From Calditrichota bacterium (lineage in GTDB: Bacteria > Calditrichota > Calditrichia > Calditrichales > J004): 42,114 nt of DNA. Shown piece by piece: positions 1,610 to 32,654 of this stretch. Each line of letters opens with the position of its first letter. Positions within the stretch are counted from its first letter, which is position 1. Position numbers and translations under genes: made by a program. Location: the NCBI GenBank assembly GCA_003696775.1, contig RFFS01000082.1, positions 1 through 42,114 on the forward strand, read 5' to 3'. The notes beneath the pieces were generated by a model, which was given only the letters and a program-made list of their open reading frames with translations, had not been told where the DNA came from and searched no databases.

Positions 1610-3571
1610 ATGAACAACTTGAACGATCATTCTCATAATTCCGATCAGGCCTTGGAAGATCATATAGAAAAATTATCCCAAAAAATTAACATACTACTTG
1701 ATGCCGTTATCAATCAGGCCGCCAATGGCATGATGCTTCTGGATCAACAAGGTGTTATTCTTATGGCCAATACCAGGGCCTGTGATATATTATCGGACAC
1801 ATCGATCCATGGTAAAAAATTGACTACCCTTTTTGCACCGGACCAGGCCATGGAACTGGAAACCGGTTTTAATCAGGTTCAACTTTCAAGTCTGGCCGAG
1901 GGGGAAAGCGCCATTGATTTGGAATTGCCGTATTATCACCAACCTGAAAAATATAAAATACTATCCACGACAATCACATCGCTTCATATCGACGAGGAAT
2001 CCTTTTTTATTCTCAGTATAAAGGACTTATCGCGTGAAAAACGCTATGAAGTGGAAATAAGCCTGTTGGCCCATGCCATGATGAGTATCAGCGAAGGACT
2101 GACCATTATTGATCTGGATGGTAAAATCATATTTGGCAACGAGGCTTTTTATACGATTTTCGACTATCCATTAAACAGCCTTAACGGCCATGATTTTACG
2201 GAACTGTGTGATGAAGATTCGACGCGCCTTTTCCGACAAAATGCCTTACAATTAAATGAGCAACAATGCTGGCAGGGGGAATTAAAGTGTGTCCGGCGGG
2301 AGGGTGATGCTTTCCCCTATAATCTTTCCACTTCCACTATTAAAGATGAACAGGGAGCACCCTTTCTACTTATCTGCGTCGGTCGTGATATAACTGAAAA
2401 GAAAGACCTGGAAGTTCAATTACAACAATCCCAAAAAATGGAAGCCATCGGGCAACTGGCCGGCGGTGTGGCGCACGATTTCAACAACCTGCTTATTGTT
2501 ATAAGGGGTCATACGGATAAATTATTACAACACCTTCGGGATGAGACGCTTTTACATTCCGTCAGAGAAATCAATAAAGCGGCCAAGCGGGCTTCGGGTT
2601 TAACCCGTCAGCTTTTGGCTTATAGCCGCAAACAGATTCTTACACCCGAGGTCTTTGACATCAACATCCTTATCCAGGAACTCTATAAAATGCTTTCCAG
2701 TCTGATTGGAGAAAACATCAAATTTGAATTGGAATTATCCCCCTCTCCCATGTTTATACTTGCGGATCAGCATCAGATCAGTAATGTTATTATGAATCTT
2801 TGCGTCAATGCCCGCGATGCCATGTCAGAGGGAGGGCATTTGACAATTCAAACATCTAAAATCGACTATGATGGTCTAAAATGTACCCGCGGTGACATGC
2901 CGAAAGATGAGCATACCTTCGTTGCCCTTACGGTCAGGGATACCGGTTGCGGGATGTCTGGGGAAACCATCTCCAAAATTTTCGATCCTTTCTTTACCAC
3001 CAAACCCAAGGACCGGGGCACCGGTCTGGGACTTTCCATGGTTTATGGCATAATTAAACAAAGCGGGGGGGGGATTGCCGTGGAAAGTACCCCTGGCATT
3101 GGCACTACTTTTCATATATATTTTCCCTATAAACAAAAAGAGGATGCCATGCCCCAAAAGACCTTGTCCGAAAATCCACCGGAAGAAATTGACCATCCTG
3201 AGAATGCCACTGTCCTGGTAGTGGAAGATGAAGAACAGGTACGCGAATTGGTTTGTGAAATGCTGGAAACCTATGGCTACAATGTACTTTACGCTTTAAA
3301 CGGACTGGAAGCAATTGATGTATATAAAAAAAACCGGGAACATATCGATCTGATCCTGACCGATGTGGTTATGCCGGAAATGGGTGGCAAAAAACTCATT
3401 GAAAGTTTACCTGATCTTCGTAAGGGCGTAAAAGTACTTTACATGTCCGGCTATACCGATAATGCTATTGATGAACAGGGCATCCTCAATCCCGACACGG
3501 AATTCATCCAAAAACCCTTCAGCCCCGTTGAACTCCTCAATAAAGTTGGCAATATTTTAAAAAACCGTTAG
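1610..3571 (+). CDS. Hybrid sensor histidine kinase (PAS-PAS-HisKA-HATPase-REC)
   Basis: Cytoplasmic signalling kinase of 653 residues with no obvious membrane segment. Two PAS-like regions (about 30-145 and 150-270) precede a HisKA domain with phospho-acceptor H289 in the motif VAHDFNN. The ATPase domain has an N-box (NLCVNARDAM), G1 (DTGCGM) and G2 (GTGLGL). The C-terminal receiver (about 535-650) keeps the acidic pair in VVEDEE, acceptor D585 in LTDVVMP and K635 in IQKPF, so it should accept phosphate. The start has an AAGGA ribosome site at 1601-1605. No response regulator or DNA-binding output gene is adjacent, so its target is unknown. The HDFNN style is common in NtrB-like PAS hybrid kinases. 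Confidence 0.93.
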   Translation: MNNLNDHSHNSDQALEDHIEKLSQKINILLDAVINQAANGMMLLDQQGVILMANTRACDILSDTSIHGKKLTTLFAPDQAMELETGFNQVQLSSLAEGESAIDLELPYYHQPEKYKILSTTITSLHIDEESFFILSIKDLSREKRYEVEISLLAHAMMSISEGLTIIDLDGKIIFGNEAFYTIFDYPLNSLNGHDFTELCDEDSTRLFRQNALQLNEQQCWQGELKCVRREGDAFPYNLSTSTIKDEQGAPFLLICVGRDITEKKDLEVQLQQSQKMEAIGQLAGGVAHDFNNLLIVIRGHTDKLLQHLRDETLLHSVREINKAAKRASGLTRQLLAYSRKQILTPEVFDINILIQELYKMLSSLIGENIKFELELSPSPMFILADQHQISNVIMNLCVNARDAMSEGGHLTIQTSKIDYDGLKCTRGDMPKDEHTFVALTVRDTGCGMSGETISKIFDPFFTTKPKDRGTGLGLSMVYGIIKQSGGGIAVESTPGIGTTFHIYFPYKQKEDAMPQKTLSENPPEEIDHPENATVLVVEDEEQVRELVCEMLETYGYNVLYALNGLEAIDVYKKNREHIDLILTDVVMPEMGGKKLIESLPDLRKGVKVLYMSGYTDNAIDEQGILNPDTEFIQKPFSPVELLNKVGNILKNR

Positions 3572-3779: not shown

Positions 3780-3782
3780 AAG

Positions 3783-3867
3783 TACCGGGAGCCGGACTCG
3801 AACCGGCACGGGATTACCTCCCGAGGGATTTTAAGTCCCTTGTGTCTACCAATTCCACCATCCCGGC
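3783..3867 (-). tRNA. tRNA-Leu (anticodon UAA)
   Basis: An 85-nt cloverleaf on the minus strand. The acceptor stem GCCGGGA pairs with TCCCGGT (one G-T pair) and the discriminator is A. The anticodon loop CTTAAAA gives anticodon TAA, and there is a long class II variable arm as expected for Leu. The T arm reads GCCGGTTCGAGTCCGGC. CCA is not encoded. It lies only 13 nt after tRNA-Cys, so the two are probably co-transcribed. Confidence 0.95.
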
Positions 3868-3880
3868 ACACAAATGATCG

Positions 3881-3953
3881 AGGCGACGGCCGGATTCGAA
3901 CCGGCGAATAAAGGTTTTGCAGACCTCTCCCTTAGCCACTTGGGTACGTCGCC
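3881..3953 (-). tRNA. tRNA-Cys (anticodon GCA)
   Basis: A 73-nt cloverleaf. Acceptor GGCGACG pairs with CGTCGCC, with the U73 discriminator typical of tRNA-Cys. The anticodon loop CTGCAAA gives GCA, and the T arm is GCCGGTTCGAATCCGGC. CCA is not encoded. Confidence 0.95.
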
Positions 3954-4099
3954 ATGCGAACAATATAATAAAAAAAATGTCTTACTAAAACATACCTGAC
4001 TTTCCACCTTTTAACAGGATATGTAATAAAGGGAAAAAAGTAAGATCAAAGACCTGTTGAAGGATGGGATGTTCAGGTTAGTTTTTAAACAAAAAAAAG

Positions 4100-4173
4100 A
4101 GCGAGAGACGGGATTCGAACCCGCGACCCCAACCTTGGCAAGGTTGTGCTCTAGCCAGCTGAGCTACTCTCGC
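4100..4173 (-). tRNA. tRNA-Gly (anticodon GCC)
   Basis: A 74-nt cloverleaf. Acceptor GCGAGAG pairs with CTCTCGC, and the D-arm TAGCTCAGCTGG is well kept. Anticodon stem CAACC/GGTTG holds loop TTGCCAA (anticodon GCC), and the T arm is GCGGGTTCGAATCCCGT. CCA is not encoded. It lies 146 nt before tRNA-Cys. Confidence 0.95.
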
Positions 4174-4236
4174 TTAATGCATTGTAAATATCAATTGTGA
4201 GTTTTGAATATACAGACTATTTCTAAATCTGTCAAA

Positions 4237-4380
4237 TTAAATTTCATCAAAAGTACGTTTTTTTATCCGTTCCACAAGTTGCCTTTTTTTACGATTGGTG
4301 GCTTTGTTTTGATTAAACGAATGATACATCAAAAACAGAAAAACAACAATCAATATCACCAGCAAAATGGAACCGCTCAT
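4237..4380 (-). CDS. Small single-pass membrane protein (47 aa), unknown
   Basis: A 47-codon ORF between tmRNA and tRNA-Gly. It begins MSGSILLVILIVVFLFLMY, a clear N-terminal transmembrane helix (about residues 4-19). A basic tail follows, rich in Lys, Arg and Asn (residues 24-43). The purine-rich stretch AAAGAAAG lies about 9 nt upstream of ATG, a weak ribosome site. The helix-plus-basic-tail layout is typical of small membrane proteins. It is too short to assign to a family by eye and could still be a chance ORF. Its position inside an RNA gene block is unusual. Confidence 0.4.
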   Translation of the reverse strand: MSGSILLVILIVVFLFLMYHSFNQNKATNRKKRQLVERIKKRTFDEI

Positions 4381-4437
4381 ACCGGACACTTTCTTTTAAC
4401 TTGTCTGTTGCCGGAACACGTACCTTAAATAAAAAAG

Positions 4438-4789
4438 TGGAGACGCCGGGAGTTGAACCCGGGTCCGGACAAGGACCAATGCAAACGCCTACGATTATAG
4501 TGATTCCTTAAATCTCATCAACATGCAGGCGGAACCACCAGCCACACATGTTAACCAGCCTGTTAATGTTAAACAGCACGCCACAGGCATGCGTCCTGTT
4601 TAATCCACCCAAAGTGGCGTTTCTTCCAACCCCGGTGGATTGGAGTCGGAGAAACGTGACAGTCAATTAAGCTGCCAGTGCGTAATTATTATCGGCACTT
4701 ATTGTGCTTTCCGGCTAATCACGGGGTAACCGGAATCCCGAATCGCAGTTTACATCCTTCACTTGCCCGTCGAATCCATAATCGTCCCC
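4438..4789 (-). ncRNA. ssrA: Transfer-messenger RNA (tmRNA)
   Basis: About 352 nt. The 5' end GGGGACGATTATGGATTCGA matches the conserved tmRNA start. The 3' end carries the T arm CCGGGTTCAACTCCCGG and acceptor CGTCTCC plus A, pairing with GGGGACG. The tag reading frame (4667-4696) encodes ADNNYALAA followed by TAA, with the ALAA degradation tail. CCA is not encoded. Its role is to rescue stalled ribosomes with SmpB and tag the peptide for proteolysis. The 5' and 3' ends are placed by pairing of the tRNA-like domain. One-piece topology is inferred from the 5'-to-3' order. Confidence 0.95.
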
Positions 4790-28081: not shown

Positions 28082-28966
28082 TTATAATTCCCGTGTTATG
28101 CCAAACGCGAAAACAATATTATCCGCATTAAACGCATGCTCTGCTCCGATGTGATATTGGGTCGGGTTGAGCCGTCGGTTATTTGTAAGAAAAAGATAGA
28201 ACACATGGCCGCCGGTTTCCAACGCCAGCCCGCCGGCCCAGGATGGATGCGAGGCACGCTCGGAAGAGGCATCATAGTGGATATTTCCGTTCCAACCGCC
28301 CAGAACCGATCCCGATTCCACAAACACACTCCACATCCGATTGAAGAAATATTGCACATAGACAGGCAAAGCAAAGGTGTATTTCGGCTGTTGATCGTAA
28401 TCATTTGCGAAAATAAAGCTGTTATAAATCCACACCGGCGTCAGGCCGATTCCCAGTTTATTATCCAGGAACATGGTATTGGCAATAAAACGCACATAGT
28501 ATTGAAAACTGTTGGGATCGAGGGCGTCGCGTTTGTTTAAGCCGCTCAGGGCTTCGCTATTCAGGGCATACCCTGCTTCCACCGCCATGGCAAGCGGCAC
28601 TTCGGCATAGCGTTCCGCCATAATTTTATACTTGATGCGGATATCCAGATTATCCTGAATATTACTGCGCCCGAGGGTAATCATCCAGTTTTGCGTCAAA
28701 CCGTAAGCCAGGGCGGTGCGCATATTTACCGGACCGTCGATGCCGTACAGACCGTCGTATCCCGTGGATAACGGACTGAAACGATGGCTGATTTCATAAA
28801 AGAAATCACCTTTTTTCAATGTTTCGGCGGTAGGCAGATTGGCCAGTTGCGAACTGTGAAACAGACTCAAAGGCGCCTTTTGCGGTGCCTTGGCCCGTTT
28901 CCAGGAGGGTTGTGCCCCTAACAGCAGGGGCAGTAACAAAATCATTCCCACACGAATCATTAACAT
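28082..28966 (-). CDS. DUF5777-like outer-membrane beta-barrel protein
   Basis: Signal peptide (MLMIRVGMILLLPLLLG), then a conserved segment at about 40-75 (SSQLANLPTAETLKKGDFFYEISHRFSP), which is the DUF5777 N-terminal pattern. The remainder is about ten amphipathic strands with aromatic residues, ending in FAFGITREL, as expected for an outer-membrane barrel. Length 294. It starts 7 nt after the YceI stop, so it is co-translated with it. In related bacteria DUF5777 genes are often found beside YceI and cytochrome lipoproteins; this is from memory and needs checking. Function is unknown. Confidence 0.75.
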   Translation of the reverse strand: MLMIRVGMILLLPLLLGAQPSWKRAKAPQKAPLSLFHSSQLANLPTAETLKKGDFFYEISHRFSPLSTGYDGLYGIDGPVNMRTALAYGLTQNWMITLGRSNIQDNLDIRIKYKIMAERYAEVPLAMAVEAGYALNSEALSGLNKRDALDPNSFQYYVRFIANTMFLDNKLGIGLTPVWIYNSFIFANDYDQQPKYTFALPVYVQYFFNRMWSVFVESGSVLGGWNGNIHYDASSERASHPSWAGGLALETGGHVFYLFLTNNRRLNPTQYHIGAEHAFNADNIVFAFGITREL

Positions 28967-28973
28967 ATGCGCC

Positions 28974-29540
28974 TCACTTTATTTTTTTCAGATTAAACTT
29001 AACGTCGATACCAATTTTTTGAGCCACTTTAATAAACGCCACCAGTTCCGGCGCTTTGATGTTAAAGTCTTTCAATTTAATGGCAAACGAGGCGTTTAAT
29101 AACATAGCATCGTTATGTTGGGACAGGCTTCCCCGGATGGTCATCTTTTTCTCAACACCATGCAGGCTCAGGATGCCTTCCGTTTGGACCTGCCAGCCGC
29201 CGTCTGTTTTCTCCACCCGGGTGGCTTTTCCCTTAAAAAAAGACAAGGGATATTTATCCGTGTGTAACACATCTTCACGCATGTCACGGTCGCGTTTACC
29301 GTTACCTGTATTGAACAGGGCAGGCTGCACTTCGAAATAGATTTCGTTTTTGCCTTGCAAAATACCCTCCCCCTCCCAATACAAATAACCATCCACCGCG
29401 TCGGTGATGCCGTCAAAATCCAGCAGGGTTGTGGAACTGTGAAAAACAACCTGATTGATCCGGGTTTTATCCACCTGCCATTCACCAGCGTTAACGATAT
29501 CCATCAGGAAAGTCAGTAAAATAAAAAGAAAACGTGACAT
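28974..29540 (-). CDS. YceI family periplasmic protein
   Basis: Secreted lipocalin-like protein (188 residues) with signal peptide MSRFLFILLTFLMDIVNA. The YceI pattern is clear: WQVDKTRINQVVFHSSTTLLDF, then KYPLSFFKG and LSLHGVEKKMTIRG. YceI proteins bind isoprenoid or polyprenoid ligands such as quinones, and the cytochrome-like genes upstream fit a redox link, though that is inference. AAAGGAG lies upstream of ATG and overlaps the T tract of the hairpin at 29555-29583, so expression depends on read-through or on a promoter inside the upstream gene. Confidence 0.88.
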   Translation of the reverse strand: MSRFLFILLTFLMDIVNAGEWQVDKTRINQVVFHSSTTLLDFDGITDAVDGYLYWEGEGILQGKNEIYFEVQPALFNTGNGKRDRDMREDVLHTDKYPLSFFKGKATRVEKTDGGWQVQTEGILSLHGVEKKMTIRGSLSQHNDAMLLNASFAIKLKDFNIKAPELVAFIKVAQKIGIDVKFNLKKIK

Positions 29541-29554
29541 AACTGAAATCTCCT

Positions 29555-29583
29555 TTAAAAAAGAAAGCCCGTTTATCCGGGCT
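29555..29583 (-). terminator. Weak terminator or attenuator between the repeat-protein gene and yceI
   Basis: A 6-bp GC stem AGCCCG / CGGGCT (29566-29571 with 29578-29583) with loop TTTATC. On the minus strand it is followed by TTCTTTTTT. The T tract runs directly into the yceI ribosome site, so it may only reduce transcription of the two downstream genes. Confidence 0.6.
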
Positions 29584-29612
29584 CTCTTATAATAAACAAA
29601 TGTAATATTTTT

Positions 29613-31590
29613 TTACTTGATTAGAATCATTTTTTTCGAATAAATGCGGGAAGATGAGGTAAGGGTATAAAAATACATACCCGCGGCCATGTGCTGCCCA
29701 TGGGAATTCCGACCGTCCCATTTCACCTGATGGTAACCGGATGCTACAACATCATTTACCAGCGTGCGGATTTTACGTCCGTTGATATCATAAATACTCA
29801 CATTCACCTTTTGATTAAAAGGCACTGTAAATCGGATGACAGTTGATGGATTAAACGGATTCGGGTAGTTCCCCAGTATGGCGAATTCTTTTACCGGCGT
29901 TAAAGTGGAGCTAAACAGAGAAGTTGGAAACTGGATATCCGTAAAATTGGTGTTATGGCTAAAATTCAAAGCAGTATCACCTGCCTGTTGAGCAAACGTT
30001 AAACGCCAGGCATGGTCGGTCGGAGGGGCATCATATTGCCCGTTTCCATTATGATCAGCATAAAAGTCCACATTATATTCCTGTCCGGCATGCATCCCGC
30101 CCATGCTTATGGAAAAATCCGCGGCGGGAACCGCATCAACGGAAACCCGACCGACTTCTTCCGTTGTGGCAGTGTTTACCATACGCATTTCAAAATATTC
30201 ACCTAAATGCGGGGTCAAACCCGTAAGGTTAAGGGTGAAGGCATAAGCCCAGTCAATATCCGTAAAGTTGGTATTATGACTGAAACTAACATTATCATCC
30301 CCATCATCGCCGGAACTGTATGATAAACGCCAGGCATGATCGGTCGGCGGCGCATCATAAATTCCGTTACCATTATGATCCGCATAAAAATCAACATAGT
30401 AATCCTTTGCAAGACGCATACCGGCGAGAAACAGACTGAATTCCGAATCATACACAGCATCCAAACGTGTACGGGAAATTTCCCTTTCGGTTGACTGTTC
30501 CACCAGGCGGGCCTCAAAAAACTCATTCAGATGAGGCGATAATCCGGAAATTTCCAATTCCAGCACATACCCCCAATCCAATGCCGCAAAGTTGGTATTA
30601 TGACTAAAAGCGGCATGGACATCCCCATTGCCGGCTTCGGCATCAACATACCATGTATGATCAACCGGCGGATCATCATACAGACCGTTGCCATTCAAAT
30701 CAGCAAAAAATTCAGCACGATATTTTCCAGATTCTTTTGTACCGCTTACGGCAAGGCTGTATGTACTCTCCGTCAGGGCATCCAACGATGCACGGCCTAC
30801 TTCCTGACGGGTCAATAAATCCACAACCCGCATATATATCGCCTGAACAAGGTGAGGTGTCATGCCATCCATATCCAAAACAAAACGATATGGCCATTCT
30901 ATATCATAAAAATCCGTATTATGGGAGAATGATGTGGTATCATCCCCGTCGGTTTCCACTTTATATTCCACCCGCCAGGCATGATCAACAGGCGGCGCGT
31001 CATACAAGCCATCACTATTATGATCAGCAAAAAAAATCAATGCGGTATTCATCCCCTTTTTGAATACCGGGCAGCGTTATGTCAAAATCAGCTGATTCAA
31101 TGGCACGCAAGGTTTCACGCGAAATTTCATGACGTGTTTTTTTATCGATGAGGCGCACACCAAGCATTTCACCCACATGAGGCGTCATGCCCGTAAAACG
31201 CACTGTCAAGGCCTGTTGCCAGTCCAGAGTGGTAAAATTGGTGTTATGACTAAAATCCAAAACCACATCGCCGTTCACATTATCGGCACTTAAACGTCAG
31301 GTATGGTCGGTAGGCGGATCATCGTATTTTTTATTACCGTTTAAATCCGCATAAAAATCAACATTATAATTATGTCCGTTTTCCACACCGTCAAAAAACA
31401 TCTGGAAATCAGCCTGATCGATGGCGGAAAGGGTTTTCCGTGCCACTTCTTCGCCATTATTTTTATCTACAATTCTTACCTGCAATTGTTGACCGATATG
31501 CGGGGTCATCCCCGAGAAGTTTAACGTGAGAATATTGCCATGCGCCCAAATAAAGGTGCTTATCATTAAAAGTATTTGCAAAAGTTTCAT
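29613..31590 (-). pseudogene. Secreted five-repeat protein with type IX sorting tail, broken by a nonsense codon and a frameshift
   Basis: Joined, the three in-line pieces (31297-31590, 31024-31278 and 29613-31052) encode about 659 residues. There is a signal peptide (MKLLQILLMISTFIWA), five repeats of 107-108 residues, and a C-terminal domain of about 92 residues (NYPNPFNPST, then YDINGRKIRTL, then MAAGMYFYTL) matching Por-type sorting tails. Each repeat has FYADHNGNGQYDAPP, an EF-like acidic loop, then DHAWR and FSHNTNFTD. A TGA at 31297-31299 replaces the Trp of DHxW in repeat 1. A T8 run (A8 at 31029-31036) shifts frame; T7 would restore it. It is preceded by a good ribosome site AAAGGAAA. 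Repeat function is unknown; surface calcium-binding is plausible. Confidence 0.85.
29930..31560 (-). repeat. Five tandem protein repeats of about 107-108 codons
   Basis: The conserved F(Y/F)AD-x-N core recurs at about 31356, 31034, 30710, 30389 and 30065, a spacing of 321-324 bases. Each unit also carries TPHxG or SPHLN, an ExxRxxLDA-like segment, and a Gly-rich turn before the next acidic loop. The copies have diverged at DNA level, so the duplication is not recent. Confidence 0.9.
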
Positions 31591-31607
31591 AATCTGTTTC
31601 CTTTATA

Positions 31608-32048
31608 TTAGTTGTTTTTGGCGCCTGCATCAATCCAGGCCCTGACCTTGTCCAACGTTGCCGAATCCGGCTGGTCTCCGCCGAGGGGCATGCGTGTTGG
31701 ATCACTTCCGTCCAAAACATGAACCAGAAAACTGGCCCCGCTATCACCCGGTTTAACTCGTTTAAGTCCGGCACCACTCAATAGAGCGGGTACATCCACT
31801 AAATTATCATAAGCCTGACCTGCGCTCAGGTCCAGGTTCGCGCTTCGGGTTCCGCTATCGTGGCATCCGGAAGTGGCGCATTGAATGTTAAAAAAATTCT
31901 TCTGTAAAAACGATAAAGTAACTTCGGATGGCACATTGAGGTCCCCGGCAGGTTGAACAATATGGTCTTCCGTGGCACAGGCAATTGCTATCCCCCCCCA
32001 AACCGCAAGGAATAGGGGCTTGGTCTTTTCCCGAAAAGCCTTAATCAT
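31608..32048 (-). CDS. Cytochrome c-like lipoprotein with CX4CH motif (copy 2)
   Basis: The start at ATG 32048 is preferred over an in-frame ATG at 32141 because it leads straight into a signal with lipobox (FLAVWGGIAIAC) and overlaps the previous stop. The mature part (about 120 residues) has CATSGCHD, a CX4CH putative haem c site, and RMPLGG, a possible distal Met ligand. It ends with VRAWIDAGAKNN. The domain is the planctomycete-type cytochrome fold found on many outer-membrane lipoproteins. CX4CH haem binding is known in Desulfovibrio cytochrome c3. It aligns end to end with the next protein upstream, so the pair is a tandem duplication. It overlaps that gene by 8 nt. Confidence 0.75.
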   Translation of the reverse strand: MIKAFREKTKPLFLAVWGGIAIACATEDHIVQPAGDLNVPSEVTLSFLQKNFFNIQCATSGCHDSGTRSANLDLSAGQAYDNLVDVPALLSGAGLKRVKPGDSGASFLVHVLDGSDPTRMPLGGDQPDSATLDKVRAWIDAGAKNN

Positions 32049-32463
32049 TTTTGGCTCCCGCATCGATCCAGGCCTTAACCATATCGATTTTATCAGAAGA
32101 TAGCGAACCGGCCGGGGGCATGACCGATGTACCACTGCCATTGAGCTTTTTAATCAGCCAGCTATCGGCGCTGTTATTGGGACTCACCCGCTTTAAGGCG
32201 CTGTTTTGCGTGGAAGTAACATTCACCAGATTATTATAGGCATTGGCGGAAGAAAGGTCCAAACCGGCTTTTTTGGTATTGGACGCATGGCAACCACTAA
32301 AAGCACATGAGGCCTGAAAGACCTGCTGATTAACTTCACTAAATGTGGGGGTGGCAGATGTACCGGGACTGACAACATTATTATTGTCCGACTCTTCCGA
32401 ACAGGCAATTAAAAAAAATAGAAAAAAGAGTATCGCACCTGCTATATATTTTAAATTAAACAT
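32041..32463 (-). CDS. Cytochrome c-like lipoprotein with CX4CH motif (copy 1)
   Basis: A 140-residue lipoprotein with signal and lipobox FFLFFLIAC (Cys at about 21), then a Ser/Asn/Pro-rich linker. The domain carries CAFSGCHAS (CX4CH), LDLSSANAYNNLVNV, KRVSPNNSADSWL and VMPPAG (possible Met ligand), ending KAWIDAGAKND. It is clearly homologous to the adjacent lipoprotein. Its ATG overlaps the DUF2892 stop (TAATG), so the two are translationally coupled. It probably carries electrons at the outer membrane or surface. Haem attachment is inferred from the motif only. Confidence 0.78.
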   Translation of the reverse strand: MFNLKYIAGAILFFLFFLIACSEESDNNNVVSPGTSATPTFSEVNQQVFQASCAFSGCHASNTKKAGLDLSSANAYNNLVNVTSTQNSALKRVSPNNSADSWLIKKLNGSGTSVMPPAGSLSSDKIDMVKAWIDAGAKND

Positions 32464-32654
32464 TATTTGGCCTCCTTTTTAAGAGTGGAAAAACCAAATA
32501 TCGAATATATCGGACACCAGCCAACCATTGCTGTGAACAACGGAATAAAACCAAGCAATCCCCACCAGTTTTGGGCATAATATCCCCATGTTAAGGCTAA
32601 AATGCCCGCTAAATAACGAACAAGTTTATCGAATAAACCAATGTTAGGCTTCAT
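32463..32654 (-). CDS. DUF2892 (YgaP-like) small membrane protein
   Basis: A 63-residue inner-membrane protein with two helices (about 15-27 and 32-50). The family pattern is clear: MKPNIGLFDKLVRYLAGI, then GLLGFIPLFTAMVGWCPIYSIFG with the conserved Cys. The start is set by a strong AAGGGAGG site before ATG 32654; an upstream ATG at 32693 would bury that site. Relatives are often fused to or beside rhodanese domains. It leads the minus-strand operon and sits just downstream of the palindromic sites at 32679-32731. Confidence 0.88.
   Translation of the reverse strand: MKPNIGLFDKLVRYLAGILALTWGYYAQNWWGLLGFIPLFTAMVGWCPIYSIFGFSTLKKEAK

What the first reader, a model, noticed from the sequence alone, without database searches (positions are those of the whole stretch)
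29613..31590. A type IX-secreted five-repeat protein gene carries two lesions yet keeps an intact frame elsewhere
Seen directly: the signal peptide, five repeats and sorting tail are all readable, but a TGA replaces the conserved Trp of repeat 1 and a T8 run shifts frame 260 bases later. The remaining 480 codons are clean. A gene that has lost selection should collect more lesions, so it is either newly dead, decoded by recoding, or affected by sequence errors. The repeat (FYADHNGNGQYDAPP, DHAWR, FSHNTNFTD) is not one I recognise.
Basis: partly seen in the sequence, partly recalled or inferred. Interest (0 to 1): 0.65.

Follow-up and report, generated by a model that had tools for sequence, protein, structure and literature searches.

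The report
Young pseudogene of secreted repeat protein
A gene for a secreted, five-repeat surface protein in an uncultured bacterium is broken by one stop codon and one extra T but otherwise looks fresh; this is what a recently dead gene normally looks like, and the main new item is that its repeat belongs to a family Pfam does not describe.

Summary
On the minus strand, 31590-29613 holds a signal peptide, five ~107-residue repeats and a type IX sorting tail. An in-frame TGA (31297-31299) sits at a column that is Trp in 23/23 repeats of other genomes and in the other four repeats here. A T8 run (31029-31036) shifts the frame 260 bases on. Coding statistics alone place both breaks.

Best explanation: a recently inactivated gene. 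Two lesions imply only about 9-25 accompanying substitutions, so a clean remainder is expected and needs no special decoding. The lesion-bearing repeats are as well conserved as the undamaged ones. Recoding is disfavoured: TGA ends 38 of 168 long ORFs, there is no tRNA-Sec above cut-off, the only tRNA-Trp found is CCA with a normal 5-bp anticodon stem, and no stem-loop follows the TGA. General sequence error is disfavoured: no other broken gene was recognised in 297 kb of this genome, and 32 of 63 eight-base A/T runs lie in intact ORFs. A local assembly error cannot be excluded without reads.

Open-framed relatives exist in three phyla, as type IX cargo (often with a Temptin-like CXXCH domain) or two-repeat lipoproteins. 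In one, the gene sits beside the same lipoprotein-YceI-DUF5777 cassette. Interest is low.

The parts
29613..31590 (-). whole disrupted gene, from the original ATG to the stop; type IX cargo with five repeats
31537..31590 (-). N-terminal signal peptide (MKLLQILLMISTFIWAHG), judged by eye, not with a predictor
   Evidence: an AAGG Shine-Dalgarno-like sequence lies just upstream
31213..31530 (-). repeat 1, carries the TGA; 138 bits against a profile built without the window's own repeats
31297..31299 (-). lesion 1: in-frame TGA at the invariant Trp column (DHT*R)
30888..31209 (-). repeat 2, split by the frameshift (51 + 57 bits)
31029..31036 (-). lesion 2: T8 run (A8 on + strand) that shifts the frame by +1
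30567..30884 (-). repeat 3, intact (113 bits)
30243..30563 (-). repeat 4, intact (127 bits)
29922..30239 (-). repeat 5, intact (148 bits)
29625..29867 (-). type IX C-terminal sorting tail (Por_Secre_tail / FlgD_ig)
29561..29588 (-). intrinsic terminator hairpin followed by a T run, closing the operon after the disrupted gene
   Evidence: -18.9 kcal/mol, z -5.4; the simple scan did not list it
31608..32048 (-). lipoprotein 2 with a CX4CH motif (CATSGCH), 17 nt upstream of the disrupted gene
32041..32463 (-). lipoprotein 1, PSCyt1-like (21.9 bits, cut-off 22), CX4CH motif (CAFSGCH)
28974..29540 (-). YceI-like protein, intact
28082..28966 (-). DUF5777 beta-barrel protein, intact

Best explanation
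31590-29613(-) is a recently inactivated gene (a young pseudogene). Shown: it encoded an exported, type IX-sorted protein of five tandem beta-sandwich repeats, last in a gene run with a DUF2892 protein and two CX4CH lipoproteins, and next to YceI-DUF5777. A nonsense substitution at an invariant Trp and a one-base gain in a T run now end the reading inside repeat 1 and shift the frame inside repeat 2. Inferred: the protein was a surface adapter or scaffold for the neighbouring redox/lipid-carrier cassette and has become dispensable. The cell now makes at most a ~97-residue fragment without a sorting tail, and the 479-codon downstream ORF has no signal peptide. The rest looks clean because little time has passed since inactivation.
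For: Both lesions are in the sequence and are placed by codon statistics. Repeat 1 scores 138 bits and repeat 2 about 108 bits in two halves, against 113-148 for the undamaged repeats, so constraint held until recently. Two lesions fit about 9-25 substitutions, 0.4-1.3% divergence. The eight relatives checked residue by residue have open frames and Trp at the column in 23/23 repeats. The repeat gene is absent from all three same-genus genomes, which keep YceI-DUF5777, so it is dispensable in this clade. It lies just before a terminator, so its loss is unlikely to be polar. TGA is a normal stop in this genome (38 of 168 long ORFs). Young bacterial pseudogenes mostly carry one or a few lesions (PMC2916853).
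Against: No reads and no second strain of the species were available, so fixation of the lesions is not shown. Reduced constraint after inactivation could not be measured, because the nearest relative is only about 45% identical.
Confidence: 0.77

Rival explanations
1. Assembly or consensus error: the gene is intact in the organism, and the bin's consensus carries a wrong base and a wrong run length, or mixes strains, in this 260-bp patch.
For: The genome is a 201-contig bin, so consensus of mixed strains is possible; the frameshift is in a homopolymer; both lesions lie close together.
Against: A lesion-calling HMM run over 297 kb of the same genome gave, among the top calls inspected, only ordinary gene boundaries. 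32 of 63 A/T 8-mers and seven G/C runs of 7-9 lie inside intact ORFs. A nonsense substitution is not a homopolymer error.
Confidence: 0.14
2. Recoded gene: the TGA is read as Trp (or Sec) and the T8 is corrected by polymerase or ribosome slippage, so some full-length protein is made.
For: The TGA sits exactly at a Trp column, and UGA is the stop that near-cognate tRNA-Trp misreads; the next base is C, a leaky context (general knowledge). Slippage rises with run length (PMC5574713).
Against: TGA is an ordinary stop here. No tRNA-Sec above cut-off. The only tRNA-Trp found is CCA with a 5-bp anticodon stem, unlike the 4-bp form that reads UGA (PMC13092985). No structure after the TGA (z +1.0). 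Neither site is conserved in any relative. Two rare events would have to coincide, and single-base transcript losses in homopolymers are rare in E. coli (PMC5574713).
Confidence: 0.04
3. Phase variation: the T8 run is a reversible on/off switch and the assembly caught the off state.
For: A homopolymer lies in a surface-protein gene; a G8 tract lies in the signal peptide of the upstream lipoprotein gene (31992-31999, intact).
Against: It does not explain the TGA. T8 runs are common in ORFs of this genome, and the run is not conserved in relatives.
Confidence: 0.03
4. Split gene: the downstream 479-codon ORF is now an independent gene.
For: It has an ATG (31052) preceded by AAGGGG.
Against: That purine stretch abuts the ATG with no spacing. 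The product would start mid-domain (MNTALIFFADH) and lack a signal peptide, so it cannot reach the type IX machinery.
Confidence: 0.02

Closest known systems
Type IX secretion cargo (Por_Secre_tail PF18962 / FlgD_ig PF13860)
   Same: signal peptide, C-terminal sorting tail above cut-off, SprA in the genome
   Different: frame broken twice, so no tailed product is expected
Temptin_C (PF24784) + three repeats + type IX tail proteins in relatives (L028 6020-7681, L141, L142)
   Same: same repeat, same tail; in L028 also the same YceI-DUF5777-lipoprotein neighbourhood
   Different: the window gene has five repeats, no Temptin-like CXXCH domain, and two lesions
DUF2141 (PF09912)
   Same: weak likeness around the D-x-N-x-N loop
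   Different: 13.9 bits against a cut-off of 24.4; not a member by this test
Bacteroidetes adhesin/fimbrillin and FnIII beta-sandwiches
   Same: seven-strand sandwich in a confident model (pLDDT 94)
   Different: best PDB match E 0.01, TM about 0.5: general fold likeness only
UGA-reassigned or selenocysteine genes
   Same: an in-frame TGA where a Trp stands in relatives
   Different: none of the required tRNAs or signals found

Membership tests
pseudogene (recently inactivated gene) | frame-disrupting lesions relative to open-framed homologues | tested here: met
   TGA and T8 against eight open proteins
pseudogene (recently inactivated gene) | no full-length product / no selection since the lesion | not testable with these tools
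   needs proteomics and close relatives; nearest homologue about 45% identical
pseudogene (recently inactivated gene) | lesions real in the DNA of the organism | tested here: inconclusive
   no general error signal in 297 kb, but no reads
type IX cargo | C-terminal sorting domain | tested here: met
   PF18962 33.5 bits, cut-off 27
type IX cargo | translocon in the genome | tested here: met
   SprA_N 126 bits, 2065-aa open frame
type IX cargo | N-terminal signal peptide | not tested
   visible by eye only; no predictor was run
selenoprotein / UGA-recoded gene | tRNA-Sec or UGA-reading tRNA | tested here: not met
   no RF01852 hit over cut-off; only tRNA-Trp(CCA) with 5-bp anticodon stem found; genome 97% complete
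selenoprotein / UGA-recoded gene | structure directly after the TGA | tested here: not met
   z +1.0
DUF2141 | score above the Pfam cut-off | tested here: not met
   13.9 against 24.4 bits

The most novel reading that the evidence does not exclude
The gene still works: tRNA-Trp misreads the UGA at the very Trp column and slippage on the T8 run restores the frame in a fraction of transcripts, giving a small, tunable amount of the surface protein.
Probability: 0.03. Interest if true: 0.6.

Novelty: new member of a known kind. Interest (0 to 1): 0.22.

Why it matters
As a young pseudogene it is ordinary. What is useful is the repeat itself: an undescribed ~107-residue beta-sandwich with a conserved D-x-N-x-N..YD..DH.W signature. 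It was found in three phyla, both as type IX cargo (often behind a Temptin-like CXXCH domain) and as two-repeat lipoproteins, and it recurs near YceI, DUF5777 and redox proteins. A curated profile would annotate a class of extracellular proteins that now read as unknown.

Tried and rejected
Recoding by tRNA-Sec, a UGA suppressor or a 4-bp anticodon-stem tRNA-Trp; stem-loop after the TGA. A general homopolymer-error genome. A frameshift between the two upstream lipoprotein ORFs was suspected but is a normal 8-nt gene overlap. 'Stops inside' reported for repeats of a third phylum looked exciting, but in the copies read they are the ordinary C-terminal stops of two-repeat lipoproteins overrun by the profile. 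Species-representative contigs gave only tail matches. PDB and NCBIfam sequence searches gave nothing. DUF5777 is in no held paper. The first lesion-HMM penalty was too strict to call anything.

Full report
What is there. The gene on the minus strand at 31590-29613 begins with MKLLQILLMISTFIWAHG, carries five tandem repeats of about 107 residues, and ends in a type IX sorting tail. Reading stops at TGA 31297-31299 inside repeat 1. Past that stop the same frame continues to a T8 run at 31029-31036, where it shifts by +1 and runs clean to 29613. The Trp column hit by the TGA is W in 23 of 23 repeats from eight open-framed proteins of other genomes and in the other four repeats of this gene. A codon-usage HMM allowed to place lesions put a nonsense event at 31297 and, at a penalty of 1e-3, a frameshift at 31029 without being told. 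At stricter penalties it kept the nonsense event and modelled the second break as a new start.

Is it a sequence error? The genome is a 3.25-Mb, 201-contig assembly, 97% complete. In 297 kb of it, the HMM's other lesion calls at strict penalty were few, and the top ones inspected by eye were ordinary gene boundaries. 32 of 63 A/T runs of eight and all but one of eight G/C runs of seven to nine lie inside intact ORFs. General homopolymer error is therefore unlikely. A local or strain-mixture error cannot be excluded without reads.

Is it recoded? TGA ends 38 of 168 long ORFs. No tRNA-Sec reaches the cut-off. Of the 36 tRNAs found, the only tRNA-Trp is CCA with a five-pair anticodon stem. That excludes the four-pair form shown to read UGA in bacteria (PMC13092985), within the limits of a 97%-complete genome. 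No structure follows the TGA (z +1.0). Single-base transcript losses in homopolymers are rare in E. coli (PMC5574713). Two unrelated rescue events would be needed, and neither site is conserved in relatives.

Is a clean remainder surprising? No. About 3% of random substitutions in this gene create a stop. With 0.05-0.2 indels per substitution (an assumed range), two lesions imply about 9-25 substitutions, or 0.4-1.3% divergence. In Salmonella 346 of 378 pseudogenes have a single inactivating mutation (PMC2916853). The lesion-bearing repeats still match a profile built only from other genomes as well as the undamaged ones: repeat 1 at 138 bits, repeat 2 at 51 + 57, repeats 3-5 at 113, 127 and 148. 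Constraint therefore held until recently.

Context. The gene is last in a run of a DUF2892 protein and two lipoproteins with CX4CH motifs, and is followed by a strong terminator. YceI and DUF5777 genes follow. In most of the other class genomes whose neighbourhoods were read, the trio lipoprotein-YceI-DUF5777 recurs. The three same-genus genomes keep YceI-DUF5777 but show neither the lipoproteins nor the repeat gene there (the G003 contig ends soon after YceI). In L028 a three-repeat relative lies two genes downstream of YceI, just beyond DUF5777.

The family. Repeats were found in 3 of 40 genomes of the window's phylum (all in one class), 3 of 39 of a second phylum and 4 of 133 of a third. 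Forms seen: Temptin_C-like CXXCH domain + three repeats + type IX tail; signal peptide + repeats + tail without Temptin (the window gene and L145); two-repeat lipoproteins without a tail. No Pfam or NCBIfam model fits. AlphaFold gives a confident seven-strand beta-sandwich (pLDDT 94) that resembles adhesin and FnIII domains only in general. The D-x-N-x-N-G-x-Y-D loop looks like a Ca2+ site; that is inference.

Verdict. A young pseudogene of an undescribed secreted-repeat family; ordinary as a phenomenon. Shown: the lesions, the architecture, the conservation, and the absence of recoding machinery in the assembly. Inferred: fixation in the population, loss of function, and the former surface role.

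Noticed in passing
window 28082-32654: Cassette of lipoprotein (CX4CH or CXXCH), YceI and DUF5777 recurs in the class; DUF2892 also adjoins it in L093 (6851-7036). It looks like a redox or lipid-carrier unit; no held paper mentions DUF5777.
   Followed up: partly
window 31992-31999: G8 tract inside the signal-peptide coding region of the second lipoprotein gene, frame intact: a possible phase-variation site.
   Followed up: no
window 3065-3073: G9 tract inside the intact 653-codon ORF 1610-3571.
   Followed up: no
L028 6020-7681, L141 4857-6530, L142 25-1686: Bacterial proteins with a domain matching Pfam Temptin_C (up to 45 bits, cut-off 27) carrying a CXXCH motif in front of the repeats and a type IX tail.
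   Followed up: partly
L142 1686-3710; L143 1146-1757: In a second phylum one repeat gene adjoins a type IX protein with cupredoxin and YCF48-like domains; the other copy adjoins a YceI gene.
   Followed up: no
L148, L149: Two-repeat lipoproteins ending directly after the second repeat, in a third phylum; the reported internal stops there are their normal ends.
   Followed up: yes
L155 1501-1704 (G204 C6:93549-93752): A truncated remnant of a repeat gene, only the last part of one repeat readable, about 1.4 kb upstream of an intact copy: another lost copy of the family.
   Followed up: no
window 3782-4789: tRNA-Leu, tRNA-Cys and tRNA-Gly followed by a tmRNA with tag ADNNYALAA.
   Followed up: no
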